NCBI GenBank assembly: GCA_001942415.1
Contig: MKJX01000099.1
Coordinates: forward strand, 1 to 64,000
Direction: 5' to 3'
Length of the DNA: 64,000 bases
Source of the DNA: Pseudonocardia sp. CNS-139
GTDB taxonomy: Bacteria; Actinomycetota; Actinomycetes; Mycobacteriales; Pseudonocardiaceae
Shown one piece after another: positions 1,583 to 16,720 of the stretch. Positions within the stretch are counted from its first letter, which is position 1. The number at the start of each line of letters is the position of its first letter. The notes under the pieces are model-generated. The model saw only the letters and a program-made list of their open reading frames with translations. It did no database searches and was not told the DNA's origin. A program made the position numbers and the translations under genes.

Positions 1583-1963
1583 TCAGACGGAGCGCGCCAC
1601 CGCCACCGCGATCGCCATCGAGCCGGTGTGGGTGATGCTCACCGTCACCGCGAGCCCCGCCGGCAGCCGCGGCCCCAGCCGCACCACCGGCCGCCCGTCC
1701 GGTTCGGCGACGATCTCCACGTCCCGGACGTTGGCCGCGACCCACGGGGCCAGCGCCTTCACCACCGCCTCCTTGGCGCACCACCGTCCGGCGAAGCGTT
1801 CGGCGCTGAGCCCGGACAGGCAGTGGGCCCGTTCGGCGGGGGTGAAGAGGCGCAGGTCGGGGGCGTGCCAGCGGGCGATCTCCTCGGCGTCGACGCCGAC
1901 GCCGGGCAGGTCGGCCAGCTCGGCCAGCGCGGCGAGCGTGTCCGTCACCTCGGCGAGCGTCAC
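1583..1963 (-). CDS. acpS: holo-ACP synthase (4'-phosphopantetheinyl transferase)
   Basis: A 126-residue AcpS-type enzyme that transfers 4'-phosphopantetheine from CoA to the serine of an acyl carrier protein. GVDAEEIARW carries the Mg-binding aspartate, FAGRWCAKEAVVKAL is the family signature with the second acidic residue and lysine, and VSITHTG is the closing strand. The start is GTG at 1963, overlapping the stop of the LuxC-like gene as GTGA, so it is translationally coupled. It is the last gene of the operon that contains its own ACP (6396-6674), which suggests a dedicated activator for that ACP rather than the housekeeping AcpS; this is inference. Confidence 0.9.
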   Translation of the reverse strand: MTLAEVTDTLAALAELADLPGVGVDAEEIARWHAPDLRLFTPAERAHCLSGLSAERFAGRWCAKEAVVKALAPWVAANVRDVEIVAEPDGRPVVRLGPRLPAGLAVTVSITHTGSMAIAVAVARSV

Positions 1964-3182
1964 GGCGCGACGACCACCCGCCGCGTGAACGACTGGAGCA
2001 GGTCGTGGCCGTCCCACACCCGGCCGAACGTGAGCGCCTGCCCGACCGGCACGATCCGGTCGATGCCGCGCCCGTTCAGCGCGACGGCGAGCGCGCGCAG
2101 GTCGGCCGCGGCGAAGCCGTGGTGGGTGAGGGTCTGGACCCGCCGGTCGACGTGCTCCACGAGGTCGCCCAGCGCGTCCAGGCGGTGCTGCAGGAAGATC
2201 CCGCCGCCGCAGAAGTCCGCACCCGCGACGGGGAACGCGTCGACGGACAGCACCGCCAGCTCGTTGCCGTACGCGCCGTACCCGGTGACCGGCTGGTCGA
2301 GCACCGTGCGGTAGCCGTAGCCGAGCTTCGCGAGCGCGCCGGCCGTGTCGACCCGGTAGCCGCGTTCGGCGACGCGGCGGGCGAGCCGGTCGAAGAGGTC
2401 CGCGCCGGCGTCCGCGCAGGTCGCGGGGTCACCGACCCACACGACCACCCGCGGTGACGAGCAGCCGAGCTGGTCGAACCAGTAGGTGTCGTTGTAGAAG
2501 CCGTGCACCAGGCGTCGCGTTCGGCGGGCCCCAGCGCGGTGTACGCGGCGGCGTCCAGCGCTGCCATGCTGGTGCGGTCGGAGAACGTCAGCTCGCCGGC
2601 GTGCGGGGCGAGCGGGCTGCGGCGCACGGTGTCGACGGTCGCGTCGCCGCCCCAGATCACCCGCACGTCGCAGGCCAGCGAGAACGCGTCGGTGACGGTC
2701 TTGTCGTGCCCGTACCGGACGATCGCGGTGGTGTCGCGCACGGCCGGATGGTCCGGCAGCAGTTCGCCGACGACGTCCACGAGCAGGTCGGTCTGCGCGC
2801 TCGCCCGCTCGGACAGGCGCACGACGTTGCGGTTGCCGCACAGCACCGACAGCAGCCACGAGTAGACGAACACGGTGTCGACGTTCGCGGGTGGTATGTG
2901 GAAGACGGTGCCGCGCGGCACGAGCACGGTGGTCTCGTCGGCCAGGTCGGCGAACGCGGCTGCCATCCGCGCGACGGCCGACCGGCGCAGGAAGTACGCC
3001 AGCGCCTGCACCTCGGGCAGGTGCCGGGCGCGGCGCCCGAGCGCGCGCGAGAGGTCCGCGCAGAACGCCGTGACCTCCGGCCCGAACGGCCGCAGCGCCG
3101 GGGTCGCGGCCAGCGCCGGGAGCAGGACGTCCAGGTCCACCGCGTCCGCGCGCGGCGCGACCATGCGCACGGCCGCGCTCAC
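1960..3182 (-). CDS. LuxC-like acyl-CoA/acyl-protein reductase (frameshifted)
   Basis: About 407 residues, similar in layout to LuxC, the NADPH-dependent reductase that converts an enzyme-bound acyl thioester to a fatty aldehyde. Landmarks are VFHIPPANVDTVFVYSW, GNRNVVRLS and, after a frame change near 2500, FYNDTYWFDQLGCSSPR, where the cysteine is the likely acyl-accepting nucleophile, then YGNELAVLSVDAF. The break follows DAW and is restored by adding one G, so it looks like a sequencing deletion. The gene starts at GTG 3182 overlapping the LuxE-like stop by GTGA and its own stop overlaps acpS. The pairing LuxE-LuxC mirrors the bioluminescence fatty-acid reductase complex, but no luciferase genes are present. 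Confidence 0.85.
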
Positions 3183-4252
3183 GACGCACTCGCGTAGGCG
3201 TGCGTGTCGCTGCAGCCGCGCAGCTCGGTCTGCGGCACCCGGCCGATGATCTCCAGCTGCTTGCCGCCCCAGCCCGTCGCCGGGTCCGCGACGCCGTGCA
3301 CGACGCCGAGGTCCTCCGTGAGCAGGACGTGCCCCGGGTAGCTGCGCGGCAGCGTGCTGAGCACCTCGACCACGCCTGGGGTGCCGTGCGGCACCTCCGC
3401 CCAGGTCACGGGGTCGCGCACGATCACCTCGGAGAAGTTCGGCGCGTGCAGGTACCCGTCGCGCCCTCCAGGAGGACGCCGCCCACCTGCTCGACCATCC
3501 CGTAGAAGTTGTGCACCCGCCGCAGCCCCGTGGACGCGTGCAGCGCCGCCTTGAACTCGGCGTTGCCGACGGCCTCGGCCTGCAGCTTCTTCCACCCGCC
3601 GCTGTGCACGAGCACGGCCTGCGAGAGGTCGACGTCCAGGCCCAGCTCGACGATCCGGCGGTGGAGGTACTTCCACACCATGAACGTGAAGCCGAAGACG
3701 AGCACCGGCCCGCCGGCGAAGCGGTCGCGGAACCGCAGCAGCGCCTCGACGTCCAGCTCCATGTCGTCGTCGAGCACGTACGTGTGGTGCCGCCCGAAGC
3801 TCAGCATCCCCAGCACACCGGCGCCGCGGGCGCTGAACGACGCCCGGTCCCGCACGACGTTCGGCGTGTCGACGACCAGCATCGGCAGCCGCTGCCGGCC
3901 CAGCACCGACGTCATGACGGCGGCCAGCCCGGGTCTGGGCCTGCGCGGTGTCGCGGTCGAGCACGATCCGGCTGACCCGCTGCCCGGTGGTGCCGCTGGA
4001 GGTCATGATCTTGAAGACCTCCTCGTCGGGCACGCTGCGCAGCAGGTGCGACTTGAAGAGCGATACGGGCAGGTAGGGCAGGTCGGCGAGCGAGCCGTAC
4101 GGGCCCGCGGGCAGCACCGAGAGCAGCCGCGCGTAGTCGGCGCAGGCGCGCCGGTGGTGCTCCACCAGCTCGGCCAGCCGGTCGAGCAGGAGCACCTCCT
4201 TCTCCGCCTGCGGGATCGAGAACTGCGGTCGCAGCACCAGCTCGTCGGACAT
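3179..4252 (-). CDS. LuxE/PaaK-family acyl-protein synthetase (two frameshifts)
   Basis: About 357 residues. The N-terminal part has FKIMTSSGTTGQRVS, the glycine-rich ATP-binding loop of the LuxE acyl-protein synthetases (adenylate-forming). The middle, in another frame, reads LVFGFTFMVWKYLHRR and RRVHNFYGMVEQVGGV, and the C-terminus ends with LTEDLGVVHG and IIGRVPQTELRGCSDTHAY, typical of LuxE. The frame changes lie near 3935 and 3465. LuxE activates a fatty acid as acyl-AMP and passes it to its own cysteine and then to LuxC. Start ATG at 4252 overlaps the ligase stop by one base (TGATG), and the stop overlaps the LuxC-like start. Confidence 0.87.
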   Translation of the reverse strand: MSDELVLRPQFSIPQAEKEVLLLDRLAELVEHHRRACADYARLLSVLPAGPYGSLADLPYLPVSLFKSHLLRSVPDEEVFKIMTSSGTTGQRVSRIVLDRDTAQAQTRAGRRHDVGAGPAAAADAGRRHAERRAGPGVVQRPRRRCAGDAELRAAPHVRARRRHGAGRRGAAAVPRPLRRRAGARLRLHVHGVEVPPPPDRRAGPGRRPLAGRARAQRRVEEAAGRGRRQRRVQGGAARVHGAAAGAQLLRDGRAGGRRPPGGRDGYLHAPNFSEVIVRDPVTWAEVPHGTPGVVEVLSTLPRSYPGHVLLTEDLGVVHGVADPATGWGGKQLEIIGRVPQTELRGCSDTHAYASAS

Positions 4253-5635
4253 CAGGCGCTCCGCTTCCCGCGCGCCTCCAGCGTGCGGTAGTCGATCTTG
4301 CCGTTGGGGGTGCGCGGCAGCGGGTCCGTCCGCCGGAACCGCACGGCGCTGACGGGCACGCGCAGGTCGTGGGCGAGGCGGCGGCGCCGGTCGTCGAAGC
4401 CGTCCTCGTCCGCGCCCTCGCAGTGCACGACCAGCGAGTCCGGCCCGGCCACCACCGCGACCGGCCCGCCGCCCTGCAGCATCTGCTCGACCTCGTCGAG
4501 GCTGATCCGGGTGCCGTACACCTTGGCGATGCGCGTGGTGCGGCCGCCGAGGAAGAGGTAGCCGTCGGCGTCGAGCGAGCCGAGGTCGCCGGTCTCCAGC
4601 CGGTCGCCGTGGACGTCGCCGAGCGCGAGGTCGGACGTGTCCTCGGCGTAGCCCATCATCACGTTCGGCCCCTGGTAGACGACGTGGCCCTGCGCGTCCG
4701 ACGGGAGCGGCGTGCCGTCCGCGCCGCGGATCTCGATGCGCCCGCCGGGCAGCGGCAGCCCGGCCGAGCCGAGCTTCGCCGGCAGCGCCGACGACGGCAG
4801 GCAGGTCATCCGCGGCGCCGCCTCCGTCTGCCCGTACATGACGTGGAACGCGCCGCCGCGCGCGGTCATGATCTCGTGGAACCACGTGACGACGGCCGGC
4901 TCCAGCCGCCCGCCGGCCTGCGTCAGCATCCGGACGGACGGCAGGTCGAGCTTGTCGAAGCCCAGCCGGCGCAGCATGTGGAACGTGTAGGGCACCCCCG
5001 CTCAGCGACGTCGGCTCGTGCTGCTTCACGGTGTCCCAGAACGCGGGCTCCAGCACCGTCGCACCGCTGACCACCACCGACCCGCCGGCCGCGAGGTGCG
5101 TGTTCAACACGGACATGCCGAAGCTGTAATGCAGCGGCAGCATCGTGATCGCGCGGTCGTCGGCGGTGAGGCCGAGCGACGCGACGATCGCCGCGGTGTT
5201 GGCCGCGACGTTCCCCCGCGAGAGCCGCACGAACTTGGGACTCCCGGTGCTCCCGGACGTCGTGAGCAGCACGGCGAGGTCGGGGTGCACGGGCGGCGGG
5301 ACGCCGTCGAACGTGCGGTGGCGGCCGCCGCCGCGGTAGCCGGGCAGCGCGCAGCCGGCCGGCGGGTCGACGACCAGCGCGGGGCGGTAGCGCGCGACCA
5401 GCGCATCGGCCTGCGCCGGGTGCAGCGTCGGGTCGAGCAGCGCGACCGGCGTGCCGTGGTGCAGCGCGGCGACGTGGTCGACCACCGTCTCGACGGTGGC
5501 GGCCGCGAACAGGAACACCAGCCCGCGCGCCGGCTCCCGGTCGGCCACCAGCCCGGCCAGCGCGCGGTGTGTGACGACCCGCCCGGTCCCGGCGTCGACG
5601 AGCGCGGGCGCGTCGCTCTGCGGATGCAGGATCAC
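4252..5635 (-). CDS. acyl-AMP ligase (ANL superfamily, frameshifted)
   Basis: About 460 residues of an adenylate-forming acyl ligase. LLTTSGSTGSPKFVRLSRGN is the P-loop core, MYGQTEA the A5 motif, TGDLGSLDADGYLFLGGR the hinge region, and RTPNGKIDYRTL carries the catalytic lysine of the mobile C-terminal domain. The frame changes near 4997 at a run of five G where four would keep the frame, so an inserted base is likely. Start is GTG at 5635, nine bases after the SDR stop. With an ACP three genes upstream, it could load an acyl chain on that ACP (fatty acyl-ACP ligase) or make acyl-CoA; the chain length is not predictable. Confidence 0.88.
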
Positions 5636-5644
5636 GGGCGCCCC

Positions 5645-6403
5645 CTAGACGAGCATTCCGCCGTCGACGCCGAGCACGACGCCGGTGACGTACGCCGACA
5701 TGTCGGAGGCGAGGAACAGCACCGCCTTCGCGACGTCGTCCGGGGTGCCGACGCGGCCGATCTTGATCGACGCGGCCCGCTCGCGGTACTTCTCCGGGGG
5801 CAGCGCCCTGGTCATGTCGGTGTCGATGAAGCCGGGCGCGACCGCGTTGACCCGCACGCCGGCCGGGGCCAGCTCCTTCGCCGCCGACCGGGTCAGCCCG
5901 ATCAGCGCCGCCTTGGACGCGCCGTACACGGCCTGGCCCTCGTTGCCGACCACGCCGATGATCGACGAGACGTTGACGACCGACCCGCCGCCGCTGCGCC
6001 GCATCAGCCGGGCCGCGGCCTGCAGGTGGCGGATCGGGCCGAGCGTGTTGACGGCGAACGTGTTCTCCAGCGCCTGGTCGGAGATCATCCCGATCAGGGC
6101 GTCGTCGAGCACGCCCGCGCTGTTGACCAGCACGTCCAGCCGGCCCAGCTCGCTGCGGATGGTCCTGTACGCGGCCGTGATCTGCGCGGCGTCGCGGGAG
6201 TCGCACTCGATGCCGACCGCGCGCACGCCGTAGGTGTCGGCCAGCTCCTTGGCCCGCAGCTCGGCGGCCGCGGTGCCGGACGCGCCGGCGACGACGACGT
6301 CCGCGCCGTGCTCGGCCAGCCGGCAGGCGGTGACCCAGCCGATCCCGCGGGTCGACCCGGTGACGAACGCGACCCGCCCGCTCAGGTCGAGCAGGTCACT
6401 CAC
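5645..6403 (-). CDS. FabG-like short-chain dehydrogenase (3-oxoacyl-ACP reductase type)
   Basis: A 252-residue intact SDR. TGSTRGIG binds the dinucleotide, NSAG and the serine in VNVSSIIG precede the active site, and VYGASKAAL supplies the Tyr-x-x-x-Lys pair; IDTDM and the closing VDGGMLV are typical of FabG. The family reduces 3-oxoacyl-ACP or other carbonyls with NADPH. It begins at GTG 6403, eight bases inside the end of the ACP gene, so it is coupled to the ACP and probably acts on an ACP-bound intermediate. Lack of a ketosynthase nearby means that chain elongation is not evident. Confidence 0.9.
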   Translation of the reverse strand: MSDLLDLSGRVAFVTGSTRGIGWVTACRLAEHGADVVVAGASGTAAAELRAKELADTYGVRAVGIECDSRDAAQITAAYRTIRSELGRLDVLVNSAGVLDDALIGMISDQALENTFAVNTLGPIRHLQAAARLMRRSGGGSVVNVSSIIGVVGNEGQAVYGASKAALIGLTRSAAKELAPAGVRVNAVAPGFIDTDMTRALPPEKYRERAASIKIGRVGTPDDVAKAVLFLASDMSAYVTGVVLGVDGGMLV

Positions 6404-6674
6404 GGTTTCGACCCGCCCCGGCGCCTTCCATCCCCCAGGTCACGCCGTACTTCGCGAGGATCTCCCTGACCTTGGGGTAGCTGCTCATGTCGATGACGTC
6501 CTCGGTGTCGATCATGACGTCGAAGGCGTCCTCGATCTCGGCGACGAGCCGCATGTGGGCCACCGAGTCCCACTGCTCGATGCCGCGGTAGGCGAGCGTC
6601 TCCCACGCGACGTCGGCCGGCACGTCGAGCGCGTCGACGAACGCCTGCTGGAGGATCTTCTCGTTGGTCACCAT
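6396..6674 (-). CDS. acyl carrier protein
   Basis: A 92-residue acidic protein with the phosphopantetheine attachment site WDSVAHMRLVAEIEDAF; the serine in DSVAHM is the expected carrier residue. The pattern continues with DVIDMSSYPKVREIL, the usual third and fourth helices of ACPs found outside fatty-acid synthase loci. ATG 6674 lies seven bases inside the end of the upstream phosphoglycosyl transferase gene, and the SDR starts within its own end. It is the hub of the operon: AcpS, SDR, ligase and LuxC/LuxE-like enzymes can all be imagined acting on its thioester, though which do is not shown by the sequence. Confidence 0.92.
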   Translation of the reverse strand: MVTNEKILQQAFVDALDVPADVAWETLAYRGIEQWDSVAHMRLVAEIEDAFDVMIDTEDVIDMSSYPKVREILAKYGVTWGMEGAGAGRNRE

Positions 6675-7423
6675 CGGGGCTCCTCCGGCTGGTCGACGAT
6701 CGGCATGGGTCCGGTGGCGGCGGCGTACGACGCGCCGTTCGGCCGGGGGAGGGTGACGCGGGGCACCACCACGAGCGGTTCGGTCGGGACGTCCAAGGGT
6801 CGGGGTGCCGGCGGCGCGTCCGCCGTCCAGATGTCGATCAGCTGCCCGGACTCGGTGCGGAAGCCCTCGTTCACCCCACCCGCGCCGCGCGCGCCGGACG
6901 GCCGGATCACGCGCAGCGCCGTGAGCGCCACGATCCGCATGTCCAGGGCGAACGAGCGGTTCTGCAGGTACCAGAGGTCCAGCTCGATGCGCTCGGTCCA
7001 GCTGATCGCGTTGCGGCCGTTGACCTGCGCCCACCCGGTCAGCCCCGGCCGCACGACCAGGCGGCCGCGCTGGCGCGGCGAGAAGTGCGCGGCCTGGTTG
7101 GGCAGCGCCGGGCGCGGCCCGATGATGCTCATGTCGCCGCGGACGATGTTCCACAGCTGCGGCAGCTCGTCGAGACCGCTGCCGCGCAGGAACCGGCCGA
7201 GCGCCGGGATGCGCTCCACGTCCTGCTGGCCGTGGTAGTCGGCGGGGCGCATGCTCCGGAACTTGACGAGCGTGAACACCTCCCCGCCGCGCCCGGCGCG
7301 CTCCTGCCGGAACAGCACCGGGCCGCCCATCGTGAGGAGGATCGCGAGCGCGACCAGCCCCACGACCGGCGCCACGACGATCCCGATGGTGACGCAGACG
7401 ACGACGTCGACCACTCGCCTCAT
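6668..7423 (-). CDS. phosphoglycosyl transferase (PglC/WcaJ-type sugar transferase)
   Basis: About 251 residues of the monotopic bacterial sugar-transferase family, which moves a phospho-sugar from UDP-sugar to undecaprenyl phosphate at the inner membrane face. One N-terminal hydrophobic stretch (VVVCVTIGIVVAPVVGLVAL) is followed by GGPVLFRQERAGRGG, VKFRSM, the catalytic Asp-Glu dyad in SGLDELPQLWN, GDMSIIGPRPAL and VRPGLTGWAQVNGRN. The start ATG 7423 overlaps the aminotransferase stop (ATGA). A proline-rich tail of about 50 residues after the conserved domain is unusual. Its position beside PglF- and PglE-like genes suggests a 4-amino-sugar phosphate as substrate. Confidence 0.92.
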   Translation of the reverse strand: MRRVVDVVVCVTIGIVVAPVVGLVALAILLTMGGPVLFRQERAGRGGEVFTLVKFRSMRPADYHGQQDVERIPALGRFLRGSGLDELPQLWNIVRGDMSIIGPRPALPNQAAHFSPRQRGRLVVRPGLTGWAQVNGRNAISWTERIELDLWYLQNRSFALDMRIVALTALRVIRPSGARGAGGVNEGFRTESGQLIDIWTADAPPAPRPLDVPTEPLVVVPRVTLPRPNGASYAAATGPMPIVDQPEEPRW

Positions 7424-8645
7424 GCTGTGACCTCCCCCAGAACCTTCAGCACGGCGTCGGCGCTCGCCTGCACGTCCGCCGACGCGAGCGCCGGATGCAC
7501 CTGCAGCACGAACGACGTGCGGCCGAGCCACGCCGCGACCGGCAGCGGGGCCGGCGGCCGGCCCACGCCGTCGAAGGCGCGCTCGCGGTGGATCTCCGGG
7601 CAGCCGCCGGACGCGCAGGCGACGCCCTCCGCCGCGACCGCGGCGACGACCCGGTCCCGGTCCCAGCCCGGCCTGAGCAGCTCCGGGCGGACCTGGGCGT
7701 AGAAGCGGTAGTAGGCGTGCTCGACGCCGTCCGGCACAGCGGGCAGCCGCAGCGCCGGCACGCCGCCGAGCGCGTCGGCGAGCATCCCGGCGTACGCCCG
7801 CCGCCGCGCGACCCAGCCCTCGATCTTGGGCAGCTGCAGCCGCCCCACGGCCGCCTGCACCTCGGTCATGCGGGCGTTGGTGCCGAAGCTGTCGTGCAGC
7901 CAGCGGAAACCCGGCGGGTGCTGCCCCTCGTGCACACCCGACCAGCTCTTGCCGTGGTCCTTCAGCTCCCAGCAGCGGCGGGCGAGGGCCTCGTCGTCGG
8001 TGGTGATCGCGCCGCCCTCGCCGGCCGTCGTCATGATCTTGTCCTGGCAGAACGACCAGCCCGCGACGCGCCCGGTGCGGCCGACCGCGCGGCCGTCCCG
8101 GCGGGCGCCGTGGGCCTGCGCGCAGTCCTCGACGAGGGGCAGCCCGCGGGCGTCGGCGAGCGCGGCCAGCGGCGCGACGTCCGCGGGGTGGCCGCCGACG
8201 TGCACGACGACCAGCGCCGCCGTGCGCGCGGTGATCGCCGGCGCCACGGTGGCGGCGGTCATGGCCTGCGAGTCCGGGTCGACGTCGACGACCACCGGCC
8301 GGGCGCCGCACGCCGCCACCGCGCTGGCGGTGGCGATGAACGTCGCCGACGGGACGATCACCTCGCGCCCGGGCCGACCCCGAGCGCCTGCAGCGCGATC
8401 TCCAGCGCGACCGTGCCGTTGGCGACGGCGACCGCGTGCCGCGCCCCGCTCCAGCGCGCGAGCTCGTCCTCGAACGCGCGGCCGTGCTCGCCGGTCCAGT
8501 AGTTCACCCGGCCCGAGAGCAGCACCTCGCCCGCGACGGCCGCGTCCGCGGCGTCGAACACCGGCCAGGTCGGGGCCGGGGTCCGGCGCACCGGCTCGCC
8601 CCCGTCGACGGCGAGCCGGCCGCCGGCGACGGTGGTGGTGGTCAC
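7420..8645 (-). CDS. DegT/DnrJ/EryC1 sugar aminotransferase (frameshifted)
   Basis: About 408 residues. The N-terminal part has LAVDGGEPVR and GARHAVAVANGTVALEIALQ; after a one-base loss near 8365 the frame continues with VPSATFIATA, DCAQAHGAR and SFCQDKIMTTAGEGGAI, whose lysine should bind PLP. DYxxNxR-type contacts are replaced by GTNARMTEVQAAVG, normal for the family. These enzymes aminate keto-sugars of nucleotide-linked intermediates, here most likely the 4-keto product of the PglF-like dehydratase. Start GTG 8645 overlaps the preceding stop as GTGA. Confidence 0.9.
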
Positions 8646-10597
8646 TGCTCGCCCATCGCGACGCTGGACGTCCGGGTGTTGGGCGTCCGGGTGTTGGGCA
8701 GCCGGGCGGGCGCCCGCCGCATCTCGACCACCGGCGGCACGTTCGTCACCCCGGCGAGCTGGGCCATGCGGGCGTACGCGGTCTGCGGGGTGACCGGCAG
8801 CGCGATCGCCAGCGCGTCCAGCGGCGGCACGTCGACGTGCGAGACGGCCGGGTGCACCGGGCGGACGTCCTCCTCGCCCTCGCCGATGAGGCACTCGTGC
8901 AGCTTCTCGCCGTCGCGCAGCCCGGTGTAGAGGATCTGCACCGGGCGCCCGGCCAGCGCCGTGAGCTGCAGCGCGATGTCGAGGATGCGCACGGGCTCGC
9001 CCATGTCCAGCACCATCGCCTCGCCGGGGCGGCCGATCGCCGCGGCCTGCACGACCAGCCGGACGGCCTCCGGGATGGTCATGAAGAAGCGGGTGACGTC
9101 CGGGTGCGTGATCGTGATCGGCTGGTCCTTGGCGATCTGCTCGGCGAACGTGGTGAGCACCGAGCCGCGGCTGCCGATCACGTTGCCGAACCGCACGGAG
9201 AGGTAGGTGCCGGTCTCCGCGCGGGCCGCCGCGTCGGCGACCAGCCGCTCGCCGATCCGCTTCGAGTAGCCCAGCACGCTCGTCGGGTCGGCGGCCTTGT
9301 CGGTGGAGATGTTGACGAACCGGTCCACCCGGGTCGCGAGCGCCGCCTCGACGACGTTCGCGGTGCCCTGCACGTTCGTCTGCCAGGCCTCGAACGGGTA
9401 CTGCTCCAGCATCGGCAGGTGCTTGAGCGCGGCGGCGTGGAAGACGACGTCCGGGCGGCGCTCCGCGAACAGCCGCCGCACGGTCTCCTCGTCGCGGATG
9501 TCGGCGAGGATCACGTCCGGCGAGTCCAGGAGGGCCCGTCCGTGGATGCTCAGCTGCAGGGCGTGCAGCGCCGACTCGTCCCGGTCGAGCATCAGCAGCT
9601 CGGCCGGGCCGCACTCGTGCACCTGGCGGCACAGCTCGGAGCCGATCGACCCGCCCGCGCCCGTGACCAGCACCGTCCGGCCGGTGATGTACCCGGCGAT
9701 GGACGACATGTCGATCTCGACGGGCTTGCGACCGATCAGGTCGGCGATGTCGAGGTCGCGCAGGTCGGAGAAGCCGATCCACTCGCGGAACATGTCGTGC
9801 AGCGCGGGGATGACCTTGACCTGCAGGCCCGCGCGCGTCGCGACGCCGCTGATCTCGCGCATCACGGCGACGTCCAGGTCGCGGACGGCGACGACGAGCA
9901 GGTCGGCGGCGGTGCCCGCGGCGATCGCGGCGATGTCCTCCCGGGTGCCGCGGACGGCGACCCCGTCGATCCGGCGGTCGCGGGTGCGCGGGTCGTCGTC
10001 GAGGACGGCGACGGGCAGGTACCCGCTCGCCGGGTCGGACAGCATCGACCGGATGATCTGCTGGCCGCCCCACCCGGCCCCGAACACGATCACCCGCTTC
10101 GCCGACGCGGCGTCCGGGCGGGCGTGCTGGTCGCGGGCCAGCCGGAACGCCAGCCGCAGGCCGGCCGCCATCGTGACCGCGACGAGCGTGGCGGTGATCG
10201 GCACCGACCGCGGGATCGCGATCAGCCCGGCCAGTACGATCACGAACAGGACCGCGCCGGTGGCGCCCATCACGCGGGCGACGCGGACGGCGTCGTCGAG
10301 CCCGCCGGCCACGGGCCGGCCGGCGAAGCGTTGGAAGAGGATGTCGAGCACGAGCTGGAGCACCACGGCGACCCCCACGGCCGTGAGCACCGGCACCAAC
10401 TGGATCTCGCCGAGCTCCTGGTCGAACCTGAACCAGACGCCGGCGAAGAGTCCGACCAGCCAAGCGGCACAGTCCCAAACAGCTATTCCGACCCGGTACT
10501 CGAACCAACCCTGCCCCTCGCTGGGCATGTTGCGAGCCATGAACGCCCCTCTCAGATCGGACCCCCCGTGGGAAGCCGAAATGAGATTCGGCGCCAT
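8642..10597 (-). CDS. membrane nucleotide-sugar dehydratase (PglF/WbpM/CapD type)
   Basis: A 651-residue, full-length member of the large membrane-bound UDP-sugar 4,6-dehydratase family. Four hydrophobic segments fill roughly residues 30-150, then a first Rossmann-like region (VIVFGAGWGGQQI), and the catalytic domain with VTGAGGSIGSELCRQ, FHAAALKHLPMLE and NISTDKAADPTSVLGYSKR, which keeps the Asp-Lys pair of the active site. It would convert UDP-GlcNAc to the 4-keto-6-deoxy sugar. It is the first gene of the nine-gene run. Two in-frame upstream methionines exist (10597 and 10540), so the start is uncertain. The C-terminal end carries a perfect 15-base tandem repeat. Confidence 0.92.
   Translation of the reverse strand: MAPNLISASHGGSDLRGAFMARNMPSEGQGWFEYRVGIAVWDCAAWLVGLFAGVWFRFDQELGEIQLVPVLTAVGVAVVLQLVLDILFQRFAGRPVAGGLDDAVRVARVMGATGAVLFVIVLAGLIAIPRSVPITATLVAVTMAAGLRLAFRLARDQHARPDAASAKRVIVFGAGWGGQQIIRSMLSDPASGYLPVAVLDDDPRTRDRRIDGVAVRGTREDIAAIAAGTAADLLVVAVRDLDVAVMREISGVATRAGLQVKVIPALHDMFREWIGFSDLRDLDIADLIGRKPVEIDMSSIAGYITGRTVLVTGAGGSIGSELCRQVHECGPAELLMLDRDESALHALQLSIHGRALLDSPDVILADIRDEETVRRLFAERRPDVVFHAAALKHLPMLEQYPFEAWQTNVQGTANVVEAALATRVDRFVNISTDKAADPTSVLGYSKRIGERLVADAAARAETGTYLSVRFGNVIGSRGSVLTTFAEQIAKDQPITITHPDVTRFFMTIPEAVRLVVQAAAIGRPGEAMVLDMGEPVRILDIALQLTALAGRPVQILYTGLRDGEKLHECLIGEGEEDVRPVHPAVSHVDVPPLDALAIALPVTPQTAYARMAQLAGVTNVPPVVEMRRAPARLPNTRTPNTRTSSVAMGEQ
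8670..8699. repeat. 15-bp perfect tandem repeat in 3' end of dehydratase gene
   Basis: Two adjacent identical copies of GTCCGGGTGTTGGGC (8670-8684 and 8685-8699). In the dehydratase frame this gives two successive copies of the five residues TPNTR near the C-terminus, outside the conserved domain. Being a multiple of three it leaves the frame intact. Confidence 0.9.
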
Positions 10598-10726
10598 CCC
10601 CCGGGTTCGTTACCCCGGCGAGGGGATGCCGCTGTCGGGCGCAGAAACGTGCCCCGAAGGGCCGCCTACGCTGGGCCTACCGGGTGAAATGGATCAAATT
10701 CGCATCGTGACCGGCGGCTGATACGG

Positions 10727-11305
10727 TCATTCGCGGGAGCGGCGCTCCGCCAAACGGTCGACGAGCAACGCGCTGCCATACATCGCAATGATCGCCGTGC
10801 ATACGCCCGCGAGGATGTCCGACGTGTAGTGCAGCCCGTTGGCCACGAGGCTCACGCCCAGCACGGCGGCGGTGCCGGCGAGGGCGGCAGCGGTGCCCGC
10901 GCCGACCGCCACGGGCCACCGCCCGGCCAGGCTCATGGCGAGCAGGCTCGTGCCGGCGACGAACGCGACGGCGCCCGCGGTGTGGCCGCTCGGGAGCGCG
11001 TAGCCAGTCTCCAGCAGGCGGCCGATCGTGGGCTGCAGCACGGTGACCGCGCCGGCGGTGACCGCGAGCCCGAGCACGTTGGCGAGGGCGACCCGCGGGC
11101 GCCGCAGCGCGAGCGAGACCAGCACGATCGCGACGAGGAACGGCGGGATCCACGCCGGGCTGCCCAGCCGGACGAGCGGGCGCAGGACCTGCCGGTCGTC
11201 GCCGAAGAGCGCGATCACGATGCCGTCGGCCCAGGTGTCGAACGGGACGGGCCCCTCGACGCCGGCGAAGGCGGCCGCGAGCCCGGCGAGCCCCACCGCG
11301 CACAC
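10727..11305 (-). CDS. PAP2-family membrane phosphatase
   Basis: About 192 residues with five to six hydrophobic stretches. The motifs YALPSGHTAGAVAF and GLHYTSDILAG match the second and third signatures of the PAP2 family, with the two active-site histidines and the aspartate. The first motif (KxxxxxxRP) is not clear; PTIGRLLETG lies where it would be. Such enzymes dephosphorylate lipid phosphates, for instance undecaprenyl pyrophosphate, on the outer membrane face, which fits recycling of the lipid carrier used by the phosphoglycosyl transferase. The start is uncertain: GTG 11305 is used, but the hydrophobic helix (PIGWLVGVCAVG) extends upstream of it with no in-frame ATG. Confidence 0.8.
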   Translation of the reverse strand: MCAVGLAGLAAAFAGVEGPVPFDTWADGIVIALFGDDRQVLRPLVRLGSPAWIPPFLVAIVLVSLALRRPRVALANVLGLAVTAGAVTVLQPTIGRLLETGYALPSGHTAGAVAFVAGTSLLAMSLAGRWPVAVGAGTAAALAGTAAVLGVSLVANGLHYTSDILAGVCTAIIAMYGSALLVDRLAERRSRE

Positions 11306-11491
11306 CCCGACCAGCCAGCCGATCGGCCTGCGCAGCGCCGCGGGGACGGTGGGCGCCCGCCCGTGCGGCGCGCGTTCACCACTGCCGGTCCCGCCACGGG
11401 TGCGTCCTCTCGTCCCCTGCCCATCTCGTCCGGGCCCGTCCGTTGTACCGGACGGACACGCCCCGTGGCCTCCGAGTGGCCGGCCCGGCTC

Positions 11492-12450
11492 TCAGCGACT
11501 CGCCAGGGTGCGGATCCACGCGAGCGTCGCGCGCAGCCCGTCGACGAGCGGGGTGGGCGGGGCGAGCGCCAGGTCGCGGGTCGCGTTGCCGACGTCGAGG
11601 CAGCTGCGCTGCACCTCGCCCGCCCGGGCCTCGGCGAACTCCGGCGCGACGGCCGCCGGGTCGCGCCCGCGGCCTCGGCGACCGCGGTGGCGAGCTCGCG
11701 GACGCTGACCTCGACGCCCGTGCCGACGTTGTAGACGCGCAGCGGCGGCGCCGGGGCCGCCGCGGCCGCGAGGTTGGCCGCGGCGACGTCGCCGACGTAG
11801 ACGAAGTCGCGGGTCTGGCTGCCGTCGCCGAAGATCACCGGGCGCTCACCGGCGAGGATCCGGTCGCAGAAGATCGCGATCACGCCCGCGTCGCCGCGCG
11901 GGTCCTGGCGCGGGCCGTACACGTTGCCGTACCGCAGGGTCAGCACGTCGAGGCCGTGCGTGCGGCGGAACCAGTCGGCGTACGTCTCGACCGTGCGCTT
12001 GCTCAGCCCGTAGGCCGAGAGCGGCTCGGTGGGCGCCGTCTCGGGCGTCGGGACGGGCGCGTCGGCGCCGTAGATCGCGCCGCCGGTGGACGTGTTGACC
12101 ACCCGGCGGGCCCCGGCGGCGACGGCGGCCGCGAACACGTTGACCGAGCCGAGCACGTTGATCGACGCGTCGTGCGCGGGGTCGGCCATCGACTTGCGGA
12201 CGTCGATCTGCGCGGCGAGGTGGAACACCACCTCCGGCTCGAACGCGCGGAACGCGGCCTCGACCGCTGCGCCGTCGCGCACGTCCTGGACCAGCAGTTC
12301 CACGCTCCCCGGGAGGTTGGCCCGGGACCCCCGGCTGAGGTCGTCGACGACCAGCACGGCCGCGCCGCCGGCCGCCAAGGCGTCCACGACATGGGATGCG
12401 ACGAATCCGGCGCCGCCCGTGACGACGGCGCGCCTGACCGGTTGTTCCAC
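11492..12450 (-). CDS. NAD-dependent nucleotide-sugar epimerase/dehydratase (frameshifted)
   Basis: About 318 residues of the extended SDR family. VVTGGAGFVASH binds NAD, FHLAAQIDVRKSM is the substrate-side loop, and SAYGLSKRTVE holds the Tyr-x-x-x-Lys catalytic pair, followed by LRYGNVYGPRQDP and IFGDGSQTRDFVYVGDVA. The frame changes near 11670; the restored C-terminus (GEVQRSCLDVGNA...) is typical and stops at 11492. Relatives interconvert UDP-glucose/galactose or make 4-keto sugars. It supplies another activated sugar next to the glycan operon; the exact sugar cannot be told from sequence. Confidence 0.88.
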
Positions 12451-12481
12451 GCGCCCACCGTAGCGGCCCGAGATCCCGCCG

Positions 12482-12545
12482 TCGCAGCCCGCGGCGCCCC
12501 GTCGCAGCCCGTCGACGTGCTGCGAGAGGGCGCGACGTGCTGCGA
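12482..12545. repeat. nested inverted repeat between minus-strand genes
   Basis: Four copies of a TCGCAGC core: two direct (12482-12488, 12502-12508) and two inverted GCTGCGA (12519-12525, 12539-12545). They can fold as a hairpin within a hairpin. The element lies just downstream of the HemL-like gene and upstream of the epimerase, so a transcription terminator or processing site is the simplest reading. Confidence 0.6.
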
Positions 12546-12568
12546 GGGCAGGGCACCTCGGCTGACGG

Positions 12569-13875
12569 TCAGGCGTAGCGGCGGAAGACCGGCTGCACCG
12601 GACGGCCGCCCATCCACTCGCTCGGGTCGCCCGCGTCGAGCGCCTTGCGGTACACGGCGCAGGCCTGCGCCACGACGTCCACGGTGCGGTCCACGTCCTC
12701 GGGGGTGAGCGCGGCGCTCACCACGAACGACGGGCCGAGCACGCCGCCCGTCACGAGCTGGCGCAGGAACAGCGTCCGGTACTGCTGCGACGGCCGGCGT
12801 CGGCGTCGAGCGTGGCGAAGACCAGGTTGCTGGCCCGGCCGCGGACGAGCACGTGCTCGCCGACGCCCATGCCCTCGGCCGCCGCGCGCACCCCGGCGGC
12901 GAGCCGGTCGCCCAGCGCGTGCAGGCGGGCCGCGATGCCGTCCTCCGCGTAGGTCCGCATCACGGCCATGGCCGCGGCCAGCGAGTGCGTCTCGGCGCCG
13001 TGGGTGGTGGAGAGCAGGAACACCCGCTCGCGGTCGTGGCGCAGCCCGCCCTGCTCCATGAGGTCGCGCCGGCCCGCCAGCGCGGACACCGCGAACCCGT
13101 TGCCGAGCGCCTTGCCGAACGTCGAGAGGTCCGGCGTCACGCCGTACACACTCTGCGCGCCGGCCTCCGACCAGCGGAAACCGGTGATCATCTCGTCGAA
13201 GACGAGCACTGCGCCGTGCCGGGTGGCCAGCTCGCGGACGCCCTCCAGGTAGCCGGGCGGCGGCTCGGACTGGGTGGCCGGCTCCATCACGATGCACGCG
13301 ACCTGGCCGTCGTGATGGGCCAGCAGGTCGCCGAGCGCGGCGAGGTCGCCGTACGGGAACCCGACGGTCGGCTGGGCCGGGATGCCCGCGTTCATCGGGG
13401 TGCCGCCGATGAACCAGTCGTCGGTGGAGAAGAACGGGTGGTCGCGGCAGAGCGCCACGAGCGTGCGACCGGTCGCCGCGCGCGCCAGCCGGACGGCCGC
13501 GGTGGTCGCGTCCGAGCCGTTCTTCGCGAACTTGACCATCTCGGCGGTCGGCACCGTCTCCAGGAACAGCTCCGCGGCCGCGGCCTCGACCGCGCTCGGC
13601 CGCACGAAGTTGGAGCCGCGCTCCAGCTCGTAGCGCACGGCGGCCAGCACCCGCGGGTGCGCGTGGCCGAGGCTCACCGACCGCAGCCCGGAGCCGTACT
13701 CGAGGTACACGTTCCCGTCGACGTCCCAGACGTGGGCGCCGCGGCCGTGCGAGATCACCGGGGCCAGGCCCTCGGGGTACTGGTCGTCGCCCTTCGCGTA
13801 CGTGTGGGCGCCGCCGGGCACGAGGTCGTGCAGCCGCGCGTTCATCCGCTCCGAGACGGGAAGCATCGAGGACAT
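12569..13875 (-). CDS. class III aminotransferase, HemL-like (frameshifted)
   Basis: About 434 residues resembling glutamate-1-semialdehyde 2,1-aminomutase. RLHDLVPGGAHTYAKGDD and VDGNVYLEYGSGLRSVSLGH open the fold, NGSDATTAAVRLARA is the cofactor-phosphate region, VLVFDEMITGFR holds the PLP-ring aspartate, and LSTFGKALGNG the Schiff-base lysine. The frame changes near 12795. The TYAKGDDQYPEG opening is seen in HemL-like proteins of sugar clusters rather than in haem synthesis, and no haem genes are nearby, so a role in glycan or natural-product building blocks is more likely (inference). Start ATG at 13875. Confidence 0.85.
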
Positions 13876-13954
13876 GCCCCTACAACCAGCCCGTGCGGGG
13901 CGCGGTTGCTGGACTTCGCCCCACCGGGCCAGTACCGGGTGGTAGACCGGCGAC

Positions 13955-15408
13955 GTGACCACCGAGCGTACGGACCACGTCGCCGCGACCCAGCCCCATC
14001 ACCTGTCCGCGCTGGAGCAGGCCGCGGCGCTGCGCCTCGGCGAGATGTCCGCCGTCGAGCTCGTCGAACACCAGCTGCGCCGCATCGACGACCTGGACGC
14101 GCGGCTGGGCGCGTTCGTCACCGTGACCGCGGACGCCGCGCTGGAGCAGGCCGCCGCGGCCGACTCGGCCCGCCTCGCCGGCGACGACCGCCCGCTGCTC
14201 GGCGTGCCGACCGCGATCAAGGACCTGGTCGCGACCGCGGGTGTGCGCACGACGTTCGGCTCGGCGGTCTACGCCGACTTCGTGCCCGCCGTCGACGACG
14301 ACTCCGCGCGGCTGCTGCGCGCGGCCGGAACGATCAGCCTCGGCAAGACCGCCACTCCCGAGTTCGGCCTCCCGCCCTACACCGAGCCCGCCGGGCGCCC
14401 GCCGGCCGTCACGCCGTGGGACCCGGGGCGGCTGGCCGGCGGGTCGTCCGGCGGGGCCGGGGCGGCGACGGCGGCCGGGCTCGTCCCGTTCGCGCACGGC
14501 ACCGACGGCGGCGGCTCGATCCGCATCCCGGCCGCCGCGTGCGGGCTCGTCGGGCTCAAGACCACGCGCGGGCTCGTCTCGCGCGGCCCGCTGGGCGGCG
14601 ACCCGCTCGGCATGTCCGTCTCCGGGCCGCTCGCGCGCACCGTCGCGGACGCGGCGGCGCTGCTCGACGCGCTCGCCGTCCCGGTGCCGGGGGAGCCGTA
14701 CCCGCTGCTCACCCGCACGCCGAGCTACCTCGACGCGTCGCGCGTCCCGCCGGGGCCGCTGCGGATCGGGCGCTACGCGACCCCGCCCGTGCCCGGCGTC
14801 GCCGTCGACCGGGCCTGCCTGGACGCGTACGAGCGCGCGACGGAGCTGCTGGCGATGCTCGGCCACGAGATCGTCGAGGACTTCGACCCCGGGATCGACG
14901 AGGGCTTCCTGCCCCACTTCGAGGTGCTGTGGGCGGTGCTGGCGCACGGCCACCCGGTGCCGCCCGAGGCCGAACCCCTGCTCACGCCGCTGACCCGGTG
15001 GTGGCGCGCCCGCGGCGCGGCGATCGGCGGGCCGCAGTACCTGGCCTCGACGCAGGCCGCGATCGTCACGACCCGGCGGGTGGTCGCGGCGCACGCGGCC
15101 GTCGACGTCGTGCTGACGCCGATGCTCGCCCAGCTCCCGCGGCCGTCGGCTGGTTCACCGCGGGCGGCGACCCCGCGCAGGACTACGAGCGGCAGAAGGC
15201 GTTCACGCCGTTCACGGCGACGTACAACATCACCGGGCAGCCCGCGCTGAGCCTCCCGCTGGGGTGGGGGAGCGAGGGCGACGGCGCCGACCTGCCGGTC
15301 TCCGTGCAGCTCGTCGGCCGGCCGGGGTCCGATGCCGTGCTGCTGGCCCTGGGCGCGGAGCTGCAGTCGGCCGCCGGCTGGACGCCGGCCCTCCCGCCCG
15401 GCTGGTAG
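13955..15408 (+). CDS. amidase signature family hydrolase (frameshifted)
   Basis: About 484 residues. GVPTAIKDLVAT carries the catalytic lysine, AGGSSGGAGAATAAG the cis-serine, and FAHGTDGGGSIRIPAAACG the nucleophilic serine of the Ser-cisSer-Lys triad. The frame changes near 15145 inside the C-terminal third, after which FTPFTATYNITGQPALSLPL and VSVQLVGRPGSDAVLL complete the family pattern. Members hydrolyse amides such as carboxamides, aryl acylamides or glutamine; specificity is not predictable. Start GTG at 13955, only 79 bases from the divergent HemL-like gene, so the two probably share a promoter region. Confidence 0.9.
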
Positions 15409-15455
15409 GCCGGGCCGGACGCCGGGGTGGGGCGCGCGCGGGATATCGTTCCCCC

Positions 15456-15689
15456 GTGAGCGTGCTGGAGACGATCCTGATCTTCGCGGTGCCGTCGGTG
15501 GGCCTCTACCTGCTGATCGTCCTGCTGGTCGTCGCTCCGCGGATGGCCCGGCGCCCGCGGTACCGGGTCGGCCAGCCGTGGCCGTACGCGCCGCTGTGGT
15601 GGACGGCCAACCCGGAGGGCGCCCAGCTGCCCTCGACCGAGGGGATCGTGGTGACCGGTGAGCGCGGGAGTGCCAGTGGCGACTGGTGA
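15456..15689 (+). CDS. small membrane protein
   Basis: A 77-residue protein from GTG 15456. A single hydrophobic segment (TILIFAVPSVGLYLLIVLLV) near the N-terminus is followed by a basic, proline-rich tail (RMARRPRYRVGQPWPYAPLW). It overlaps the start of the DUF5130 gene by 32 bases, so the two are co-translated. Such short proteins sit upstream of DUF5130 genes in other actinomycetes as I recall; no function is known. Confidence 0.7.
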   Translation: MSVLETILIFAVPSVGLYLLIVLLVVAPRMARRPRYRVGQPWPYAPLWWTANPEGAQLPSTEGIVVTGERGSASGDW

Positions 15690-16227
15690 GGGGCACGGGC
15701 ACGGCGCGGTTGCCGTCGTCCCCGAGGAACTGCCCGTCGGCGCCGTCGTCACCCTGTCGGGCCGCGTCTCGGCCGCCGAGGTCTACGAGGACCCGGACCC
15801 CGCCGAGCACCCGTTCTCGCCGGTGCAGCTCTCCCGCCTCGACGAGGCGCTGACGCTCGCCAGCCGCGAGACCGGGATGCTGTTCAGCATCTACCTCGGC
15901 GACCTGGGCGACGACCCGGAGAAGCAGGCCGGCGAGCTGCACGACCAGCTCCCGGGCGCCGTCGAGGCCGTGCTGGTGGCCGTGAGCCCCGGCCAACGGG
16001 TGGTGCACGTCGTCACCGGGCCGGAGGCGCGGCTGCGCCTGCCCGACCGGCTCGCGAAGCTCGCCGTCATGAGCATGGTGGCCTCCTTCAAGGAGGGCGA
16101 CCTCCTCGGCGGGCTGCTCAGCGGCCTGCGCATGCTCGCCGACCAGGCGGCAGCCGCCGCACCCGCTGAGCGCAACGGGCGACCGGTGACCGATCGTCCG
16201 TCACTTTTGACCTTTCATCGACGTTAG
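15658..16227 (+). CDS. DUF5130 (TPM-like) family protein
   Basis: About 189 residues. The core FSIYLGDLGDD and VEAVLVAVSPGQRVVHVVTG, followed by RLAKLAVMSMVASFKEGDLLGGLLSGL, matches the actinobacterial DUF5130 family, related to TPM-type domains. The protein lacks an evident signal peptide. It overlaps the upstream small membrane-protein gene, suggesting that the pair acts together at the membrane. A later GTG at 15670 is a possible alternative start. No catalytic role is established. Confidence 0.78.
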   Translation: MSAGVPVATGEGHGHGAVAVVPEELPVGAVVTLSGRVSAAEVYEDPDPAEHPFSPVQLSRLDEALTLASRETGMLFSIYLGDLGDDPEKQAGELHDQLPGAVEAVLVAVSPGQRVVHVVTGPEARLRLPDRLAKLAVMSMVASFKEGDLLGGLLSGLRMLADQAAAAAPAERNGRPVTDRPSLLTFHRR

Positions 16228-16313
16228 CGATGGTCGATTCGGCCTGACAGTCGCATACTGTGCGTCGAGTGGCCCCCCGAAGGCCACGGACTGATGAAGG
16301 GCGGGACCCCACA

Positions 16314-16635: not shown

Positions 16636-16646
16636 CGCCCGGCTCC

Positions 16647-16716
16647 ACCGCACACACCTCAAGGACTCCGCACACACGTTCTGACGTGTGTGCGGAGTCC
16701 GTTTGGTGTGTGCGGT
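16647..16716. terminator. large nested-hairpin bidirectional terminator
   Basis: Outer arms of 12 bases (16647-16658 and 16705-16716, ACCGCACACACC with its complement) enclose 5-base internal loops and inner arms of 16 bases (16664-16679 and 16684-16699), all perfectly paired, with a 4-base loop TCTG. It sits exactly between the convergent zinc-ribbon gene (stop 16635) and pepN (stop 16721). No U-tract follows, as is common in actinomycetes. Confidence 0.85.
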
Positions 16717-16720
16717 CGGG

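What the first reader, a model, noticed from the sequence alone, without database searches (positions are those of the whole stretch)
1583..10597. Amino-sugar phosphoglycosyl transfer genes fused in one operon with a LuxC/LuxE-like fatty-acid reductase set
Seen: nine minus-strand genes, eight junctions with overlaps of 1-8 bases or gaps of at most 9, in the order PglF-like dehydratase, DegT aminotransferase, PglC-like transferase, ACP, FabG-like SDR, ANL ligase, LuxE-like, LuxC-like, AcpS. Known: LuxE and LuxC together turn an acid into an aldehyde; the first three make and load a 4-amino sugar on undecaprenyl phosphate. Inference: the acyl branch may supply an acyl, hydroxyacyl or aldehyde group that decorates the sugar, or the two branches may meet in a glycolipid. 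No luciferase, ketosynthase or glycosyltransferase is present. I recall LuxC/LuxE-like genes in some Gram-negative polysaccharide loci, but an actinomycete version with its own AcpS seems little studied.
Basis: partly seen in the sequence, partly recalled or inferred. Interest (0 to 1): 0.75.

Follow-up and report, generated by a model that had tools for sequence, protein, structure and literature searches.

The report
Sugar-decorating cassette built around LuxE/LuxC
A soil actinomycete carries a conserved gene set that probably reduces one end of a small organic acid and attaches the product to an amino sugar that starts a surface polysaccharide; the "bioluminescence-type" genes in it most likely make a short sugar decoration, not light or fat.

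Summary
The nine genes are real and in the stated order, but four (aminotransferase, ligase, LuxE, LuxC) are broken by five frameshifts, probably indel errors of a draft contig: Pseudonocardia sp. TRM90224 has the same locus intact (57-80% identity). There it adjoins 13 genes (glycosyltransferases, flippase, likely polymerase, chain-length kinase, GNAT acyltransferases) whose orthologues lie on another contig of the window's genome. So the operon is the initiating half of a Wzx/Wzy-type locus.

ACP-SDR-ligase-LuxE-LuxC is a widespread cassette: exact order in 77 of 96 loci, members in eight phyla, usually beside amino-sugar or nonulosonate genes. Its LuxE groups with fused LuxE-LuxC proteins, apart from lux-operon LuxE; in one family of such loci an iron alcohol dehydrogenase replaces the SDR. 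That order matches, by recall, the Vibrio cholerae O1 tetronate genes.

Best explanation: the ligase loads one carboxylate of a dicarboxylate on the ACP, LuxE/LuxC reduce the other to an aldehyde, the SDR makes an alcohol, and the hydroxyacyl group goes to the 4-amine of a bacillosamine-type sugar. Substrate, product and transferase are inferred. New variant of a known kind; published "fatty-acid/liposugar" guesses are probably wrong.

The parts
10727..11305 (-). PAP2-family phosphatase (possible lipid-phosphate phosphatase of the same locus)
   Evidence: PF01569; 40% identical gene at the same place in TRM90224
8642..10540 (-).
   Evidence: PF02719 328 bits; best PDB match 5bju WlaL protein; 67% to TRM90224
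7420..8645 (-). DegT/PglE-type 4-amino sugar aminotransferase, one frameshift near 8370
   Evidence: PF01041 on both pieces; 75-77% to TRM90224; best PDB match of that orthologue 7l7x
6668..7423 (-). PglC-type phosphoglycosyl transferase
   Evidence: PF02397; best PDB matches 8g1n/8e37 diacetylbacillosaminyl-1-phosphate transferase; 70% to TRM90224
6396..6674 (-). acyl carrier protein with WDSVAHM motif
   Evidence: PF00550 just under cut-off; motif serine in all 18 aligned rows
5645..6403 (-). SDR oxidoreductase, proposed aldehyde-to-alcohol reductase
   Evidence: PF13561/PF00106; Ser147, Tyr160, Lys164 in all 20 aligned rows; Fe-ADH stands in for it in L250
4252..5635 (-). ANL (AMP-forming) ligase, proposed dicarboxylate:ACP ligase, one frameshift near 5000
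   Evidence: PF00501 on both pieces; 61-68% to TRM90224; C-terminal Lys in all 21 relatives aligned, and read in the window
3179..4252 (-). LuxE-type acyl-protein synthetase, two frameshifts near 3927 and 3460
   Evidence: PF04443; 74-80% to TRM90224; C-terminal Cys in all 16 relatives aligned, and read in the window
1960..3182 (-). LuxC-type acyl-protein thioester reductase, one frameshift near 2514
   Evidence: PF05893; 58-63% to TRM90224; Cys in all 22 relatives aligned, and read in the window
1583..1963 (-). AcpS-type phosphopantetheinyl transferase
   Evidence: PF01648; 59% to TRM90224
11215..12450 (-). NDP-sugar epimerase upstream on the same strand (C-terminus looks frameshifted); link to the operon uncertain
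   Evidence: PF01370; not beside the TRM90224 operon
12569..13962 (-). class-III aminotransferase upstream on the same strand (C-terminus looks frameshifted); link uncertain
   Evidence: PF00202 on the N-terminal piece, no match for the other piece; not beside the TRM90224 operon

Best explanation
The operon is the initiating half of a Wzx/Wzy-type surface-polysaccharide locus. PglF and the DegT enzyme make a UDP-4-amino-4,6-dideoxy-GlcNAc and PglC puts the sugar phosphate on undecaprenyl phosphate (inferred from families). The five-gene cassette ACP-SDR-ligase-LuxE-LuxC, activated by its own AcpS, makes a short omega-hydroxyacyl thioester. The ligase loads one carboxylate of a small dicarboxylate (malate, succinate or the like) on the ACP. 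LuxE adenylates the other and takes it as a thioester on its C-terminal cysteine, passes it to the LuxC cysteine, and LuxC reduces it with NADPH to an aldehyde. The SDR reduces the aldehyde to the alcohol. An acyltransferase (GNAT type in Pseudonocardia; PglD-like, LpxA-like or GNAT elsewhere) moves the hydroxyacyl group to the 4-amine of the sugar. Shown by sequence: gene content, order, conserved catalytic residues, conservation, link to polysaccharide genes. Inferred: substrate, order of the two activations, product, transferase. It works like the Vibrio cholerae O1 tetronate pathway.
For: (1) Identical, unbroken locus in TRM90224. (2) There it adjoins 13 genes: four glycosyltransferases, Polysacc_synt flippase (12 predicted membrane segments), an 11-segment protein without family, Wzz/tyrosine kinase, two PF13480 GNATs, epimerase and others; all 13 have orthologues on contig C185 of the window's genome, while the flanks mostly do not match. 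(3) Exact five-gene order in 77 of the 96 loci (of 112 examined) that hold this LuxE; of 93 with ligase, LuxE and LuxC, 75 have an acyltransferase cluster and 78 a DegT within 10 kb of LuxE (loci were chosen by LuxE/LuxC and many are close relatives). (4) In three loci of unnamed, presumably Vibrionaceae genomes a fused LuxE-LuxC (825-827 aa) follows a ligase and an Fe-ADH (Pfam-tested in L250), beside NeuB and PglD-like genes. (5) Cassette and fused LuxE lie together on one side of a branch (SH-aLRT 98), apart from lux-operon LuxE; 10 of those 11 lux rows were checked and have a luciferase-like gene upstream, 6 over the Pfam cut-off. (6) An LpxA-like protein, a family that uses acyl-ACP, is found in 54 loci, next to the ACP in 51 (one member compared). 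(7) Two acid-activating enzymes and no ketosynthase in the operon fit a diacid. (8) Aeromonas piscicola AH-3, with the same five genes listed in the same order beside pse genes, has a pseudaminic derivative of 376.14 Da and an unknown 102 Da unit (PMC7874193, passages); acetyl replaced by C4H6O3 gives 376.148 and C4H6O3 itself is 102.032. (9) AmcH, another adenylate-forming ligase, loads 2-oxoglutarate on an ACP (PMC10698177, passages).
Against: No acyltransferase lies in the operon itself; PglD_N and LpxA-like searches of the window's genome found none, and the GNAT orthologues are on another contig. 18 of 93 loci showed none of the five acyltransferase clusters, though clusters undercount: Deinococcus has a PglD-like one. 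LpxA-like enzymes do not exclude a long acyl chain. The ligase matches AmcH weakly (68.8 bits, cut-off 370). The SDR is nearest 3-oxoacyl-ACP reductase (242 bits, cut-off 297.75) and passes only a generic SDR subfamily cut-off among the 25 models shown (NF005559), so a 3-keto substrate is not excluded. AmcH loaded only 2-oxoglutarate and not malate or succinate, so the substrate of one ligase says little of another. Other LuxE/LuxC loci hold TPP enzymes, NeuB or transketolases, suggesting other uses of the aldehyde. V. cholerae gene identities are recalled; I did not find that cluster in the genomes searched.
Confidence: 0.6

Rival explanations
1. Fatty-acid or 'liposugar' module: the cassette makes a medium or long acyl group or fatty aldehyde that is put on the glycan, as guessed for enterobacterial and Aeromonas flagellin islands.
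For: Names of the gene families; published suggestions in PMC4875605 and PMC7874193 (passages); LpxA-like protein beside the ACP in 51 loci.
Against: LuxE is apart from lux-operon LuxE; LuxC and LuxE of TRM90224 score far under the long-chain equivalog cut-offs (40.8 of 750, 60.9 of 550); by gene content no ketosynthase and no LuxD-type thioesterase in the operon; the two unexplained Aeromonas masses fit C4H6O3.
Confidence: 0.15
2. The LuxC aldehyde is itself the building block: it is joined to a sugar or keto acid by C-C bond formation or reductive amination, and the SDR acts elsewhere.
For: Loci L252-L254 with LuxE/LuxC, NeuB-type synthase and TPP-type enzyme (Pfam-tested in L254, with a FabA-like protein), ACP and ligase; Rhizobium locus with LuxE/LuxC and split transketolase.
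Against: By gene content no TPP enzyme, transketolase or NeuB in the operon; the tight ACP-SDR-ligase set and the SDR/Fe-ADH exchange point to an alcohol.
Confidence: 0.13
3. 3-hydroxyacyl route: the SDR reduces a 3-ketoacyl-ACP as FabG does, giving a 3-hydroxybutyryl-type N-acyl group; LuxE/LuxC act on a different molecule.
For: SDR nearest to 3-oxoacyl-ACP reductase; 3-hydroxybutyryl amino sugars are common (recalled).
Against: Leaves LuxE/LuxC unexplained although they sit side by side with the ligase in nearly all loci; no ketosynthase in the operon; Fe-ADH stands in for the SDR in the fused version.
Confidence: 0.08
4. Two independent pathways merely share a transcript, or the broken genes are pseudogenes.
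For: Five frameshifts in four genes; the cassette occurs in other loci without PglF/PglC.
Against: Intact in TRM90224; frameshifts are spread along the contig; the sugar transferase-cassette pairing recurs in Deinococcus, Virgisporangium, Micrococcales 31B and an acidobacterium.
Confidence: 0.04

Closest known systems
Vibrio cholerae O1 tetronate genes (rfb/wbe region VC0248-VC0252; putative pathway Morona et al. 1995, title seen in the reference list of PMC3441752)
   Same: Amino sugar N-acylated by a C4 dihydroxy acid; a 471-aa WbeL predicted for tetronate synthesis (PMC3441752, passages). By recall: ACP, ligase, alcohol dehydrogenase, LuxE/LuxC-like RfbN, acyltransferase. Loci L248 and L250 have that order.
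   Different: SDR instead of Fe-ADH, separate LuxE and LuxC, own AcpS, bacillosamine-type sugar and PglC instead of GDP-perosamine; product unknown here.
Aeromonas Group II and enterobacterial flagellin glycosylation islands
   Same: Same five genes listed in the same order in Aeromonas (ACP, 3-oxoacyl-ACP reductase, AMP synthetase, LuxE, LuxC; PMC7874193, passages); same gene kinds in enterobacteria (PMC4875605, passages).
   Different: In Aeromonas beside pseudaminic acid genes; here beside PglF/DegT/PglC and, in the relative, a Wzx/Wzy locus. No AcpS is mentioned in the passages seen.
Campylobacter Pgl diacetylbacillosamine route (PglF, PglE, PglD, PglC)
   Same: PglF best matches the WlaL structure and PglC the diacetylbacillosamine transferase.
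   Different: No PglD in the operon; the cassette probably supplies another acyl group.
lux fatty-acid reductase LuxC/LuxE (structure 7xc6)
   Same: Homologous; the invariant cysteines align.
   Different: Far apart in the LuxE tree; LuxC about 400 against 477 residues; no luciferase or LuxD in the operon.

Membership tests
LuxC (PF05893) | profile match over the curated cut-off | tested here: met
   56.2 bits, cut-off 21
LuxE (PF04443) | profile match over the curated cut-off | tested here: met
   90 bits, cut-off 24.9
lux long-chain fatty-acid reductase (NF052251, NF052244) | equivalog cut-off | tested here: not met
   intact TRM90224 proteins 40.8 of 750 and 60.9 of 550
lux long-chain fatty-acid reductase (NF052251, NF052244) | LuxE branches with lux-operon LuxE | tested here: not met
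   52-row tree from 71 loci chosen, TRM90224 standing for the window
V. cholerae tetronate (rfbKLMNO) type | ACP, ligase, LuxE and LuxC together in a sugar locus | tested here: met
V. cholerae tetronate (rfbKLMNO) type | Fe-ADH and fused LuxE-LuxC (recalled for RfbM, RfbN; seen in L248-L250) | tested here: not met
   SDR and separate genes in the window; Fe-ADH and fusion in L250
V. cholerae tetronate (rfbKLMNO) type | dedicated acyltransferase in the gene set | tested here: inconclusive
   none in the operon; GNAT orthologues on C185
V. cholerae tetronate (rfbKLMNO) type | product 3-deoxy-L-glycero-tetronate | not testable with these tools
   needs biochemistry
Bacillosamine (Pgl) initiation | PglF, PglE, PglC homologues in one operon | tested here: met
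Bacillosamine (Pgl) initiation | PglD acetyltransferase | tested here: not met
   PglD_N 0 matches in the own genome (genome 78.5% complete and error-prone)
Wzx/Wzy-type polysaccharide locus | flippase, polymerase, chain-length regulator, glycosyltransferases | tested here: met
   beside the operon in TRM90224, orthologues on C185; polymerase only by membrane segments

The most novel reading that the evidence does not exclude
LuxE/LuxC-type reductases are mainly sugar-decorating enzymes: a module spread over at least eight phyla loads a dicarboxylate on an ACP and reduces its free end to an omega-hydroxyacyl group for amino sugars, and the bioluminescent fatty-acid reductase is a specialised side branch of this enzyme family. 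In the window's organism the module decorates the first, lipid-linked sugar of a surface polysaccharide.
Probability: 0.35. Interest if true: 0.75.

Novelty: new variant of a known kind. Interest (0 to 1): 0.55.

Why it matters
The tetronate route of the cholera O antigen was proposed from sequence in 1995, and a 2012 paper (PMC3441752, passages seen) still speaks of a gene predicted for it; flagellin papers call the same kinds of genes fatty-acid or liposugar genes. A split, five-protein actinomycete version with its own AcpS makes the chemistry directly testable in laboratory hosts, would change how LuxC/LuxE are annotated in many polysaccharide loci, and offers an account of the unexplained 102 and 376 Da units of an Aeromonas flagellin glycan.

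Tried and rejected
Pseudogene operon: rejected as the less likely reading because TRM90224 is intact and frameshift density is raised in both stretches of the contig examined. Lux-type fatty aldehyde pathway: lowered by the tree and the equivalog scores. Acyltransferase inside the operon: none found; PglD_N and an LpxA-like query gave nothing in the own genome, and five acyltransferase clusters (up to six members each) gave no hit in the 84 kb of contig C99 held, while the TRM90224 GNAT query found C185. The V. cholerae cluster itself was sought among genomes of the family and genus reached through G711 and G954 (247 genomes; 227 genomes) and not recognised; three related loci were found, and a fourth match (L268) was not examined. 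L200-L205 (fused LuxE-LuxC elsewhere in Pseudomonadota) had no clear sugar context in the ORF listing and were left. Literature on actinomycete versions: LuxE/LuxC searches gave nothing specific, on teichulosonic acids, gave nothing used. A careful tree did not finish; the quick one is reported. Structure prediction was not used.

A1 holds 16 LuxE proteins, A2 22 LuxC, A3 21 ligases, A4 20 SDRs, A5 18 ACPs, picked from the loci then held; window rows are only in A4 and A5. Gene calls in loci were made by my own codon-usage script; L090 printed no calls, so it is missing from the order counts, and small ACP genes were sometimes missed.


Full report
What is there. The window is the left end of an 89-kb contig of a 7.1-Mb, 250-contig genome of 78.5% estimated completeness. 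The genome is of the genus of Pseudonocardia sp. TRM90224: G450 is listed as same genus, and its contig of 81,421 bases has the length of the named TRM90224 contig. Four of them are broken by five frameshifts against TRM90224. A coding model finds 4.2 and 6.4 shifts per 10 kb coding in two stretches of this contig and 0 to 2.2 in eight control stretches, two of which overlap and two of which trained the codon table. I read the breaks as indel errors of the draft.

The intact counterpart. TRM90224 holds PAP2-PglF-DegT-PglC-ACP-SDR-ligase-LuxE-LuxC-AcpS in the same order, all open. In the genus, a LuxE profile found strong matches in 2 of 62 genomes, the own one and TRM90224; two further weak matches (E 1.8e-4 and 9.8e-4) make the tally 4 of 62. 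Other LuxC-family hits in the genus are weak and probably other aldehyde dehydrogenases (not examined), except one strong LuxC in G002 that does not belong to this cassette.

The missing half. Beside the TRM90224 operon, on both strands, lie 13 genes: a 328-aa protein without significant family match, a PF13480 GNAT, an epimerase, a protein with a sub-threshold deacetylase match, a second PF13480 GNAT, a 680-aa protein with a weak Glyco_hydro_42M match, four glycosyltransferases (one GT2-type, three GT4-type), an 11-segment membrane protein without family, a Polysacc_synt flippase and a chain-length/tyrosine kinase. All 13 have orthologues in the window's genome on contig C185:2426-17889, in the same order save one swapped pair; several of these too are split over frames. 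In the 72 kb of the TRM90224 contig compared with C99:1-83900 and C185:1-35000, genes next to this 26-kb block do not match, apart from a few scattered hits elsewhere on C99 and one weak SDR hit.

The cassette across bacteria. tblastn with window proteins found ACP, ligase, LuxE and LuxC with an SDR in Actinomycetota, Deinococcota, Acidobacteriota, Pseudomonadota, Bacillota, Chloroflexota, Campylobacterota and a candidate GN15 bacterium; in Bacillota the SDR is displaced upstream, and in some loci (for example L087, L091) no SDR hit was seen. Of 112 loci examined, 96 have a LuxE of this cluster and 77 of those have the exact order on one strand. They are not independent: one Pseudonocardiaceae-dominated group makes up 54 of the 104 rows of the LuxE tree. 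At a strict cut-off the LuxE profile found 3 of 396 genomes sampled over the phylum, the own one included, so the cassette is patchy; PF04443 in general was found in 44 of 397 genomes of the order and 29 of 398 of the phylum of Sphingopyxis.

Contexts. (a) Sugar transferase plus cassette: window, TRM90224, Micrococcales bacterium 31B, Virgisporangium, Deinococcus sp. NW-56 (plasmid, among glycosyltransferases) and an acidobacterium with PglF. In 31B, Virgisporangium, Deinococcus and Actinoplanes liguriensis a PglD-like acyltransferase follows LuxC (Pfam-tested in 31B and Deinococcus). (b) Amycolatopsis type: GFO/IDH oxidoreductase, DegT, an LpxA-like protein (54 loci, adjacent to the ACP in 51), an LPG-synthase-TM protein. 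(c) Nonulosonate type: NeuB, cytidylyltransferase and GNAT genes in Micromonosporaceae and Bacillota; in Arcobacter the cassette is followed by a small protein I take by eye for PseH-like and by a NeuB-cluster gene. AcpS homologues were seen in L049, L050, L076, L081, L082, L083, L084 and L154. In the LuxE tree the window, TRM90224, L049, L050, L076, L081, L082, L085 and L154 form one group (SH-aLRT 92, quick tree), with AcpS in 8 of 9.

Mechanism. Catalytic residues are kept: ACP serine (18 of 18 rows), SDR Ser-Tyr-Lys (20 of 20), ligase lysine (21 of 21), LuxC cysteine (22 of 22), LuxE cysteine (16 of 16); the two cysteines align with cysteines of LuxC and LuxE in 7xc6 (their catalytic role is recalled). 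Both the ligase and LuxE keep the glycine-rich motif that I recall as ATP-binding, so two carboxylates, or one acid twice, are activated. A diacid explains this without a ketosynthase. The sharpest comparison is L248-L250, from the family of G711. The order there is ACP, ligase, iron alcohol dehydrogenase (Pfam-tested in L250; similar 374-aa proteins in L248 and L249), fused LuxE-LuxC; an ACP was called in L248 and L250, not in L249. NeuB and PglD-like genes lie beside (Pfam-tested in L250). An alcohol dehydrogenase in place of the SDR argues that this step reduces an aldehyde. The order equals, by recall, rfbK-L-M-N of V. cholerae O1. PMC3441752 (passages) assigns VC0248-VC0252 to tetronate biosynthesis, cites the 1995 pathway paper, and reports that an in-frame wbeL deletion is devoid of O1 antigen while a phase variant keeps some; PMC6562859 (passages) names the acyl group (S)-2,4-dihydroxybutyryl. 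In Aeromonas AH-3 the same five genes lie beside pse genes; its 376.14 Da sugar and 102 Da unit fit a C4H6O3 acyl group. That mass argument is mine; the authors suggest a liposugar.

Tree. With lux-operon LuxE included, cassette and fused LuxE (33 rows) lie on one side of a branch with support 98, and the 11 lux LuxE form another group with 100. Long branches are flagged, so I use only this split. Of the 11 lux rows, 10 were checked for a luciferase-like gene upstream and all 10 matched PF00296, 6 over its cut-off; the eleventh starts at a contig edge.

Limits. No enzyme has been assayed. The acyltransferase for the window's sugar is not identified; two GNATs are candidates. The DegT orthologue matches structure 7l7x best by far (386.6 bits, next 195.7), which supports a sugar aminotransferase but not the exact sugar. 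Transcription as one unit was not tested. The V. cholerae proteins were not compared directly.

Noticed in passing
window 1-64000 and G000:C99:64001-83900 (L075): Frameshift density is raised along the contig, for example a split amidase near 15139; reading frames from this genome should be handled with care.
   Followed up: yes
   Followed up: partly
L079 (Rhizobium anhuiense plasmid) 5203-17386: LuxE/LuxC beside DegT, split transketolase, LpxA-like acyltransferase, GMC oxidoreductase and FabZ; possible unknown amino-diol or glycolipid pathway.
   Followed up: no
L053, L054, L131, L141, L160 and others (Micromonosporaceae and kin), clusters c27, c28, c36: Proteins of about 340, 277 and 587 aa kept beside the cassette and nonulosonate-type genes; the one member of each scanned matched no Pfam family.
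   Followed up: no
L112 (Rhodococcus rhodnii NRRL B-16535): Its LuxE is almost identical to that of Kibdelosporangium aridum (L105); the genome may be mislabelled or the locus recently transferred.
   Followed up: no
L200-L205 (unnamed Pseudomonadota): LuxE-LuxC fusions of about 820 aa, in L200-L203 followed by an AMP ligase, without an obvious sugar locus in the ORF listing.
   Followed up: no
Amycolatopsis-type loci, cluster c7 (55 loci): An LPG_synthase_TM membrane protein (one member scanned) is regularly found near the cassette; a flippase-like or transfer role for the decorated sugar is possible.
   Followed up: no
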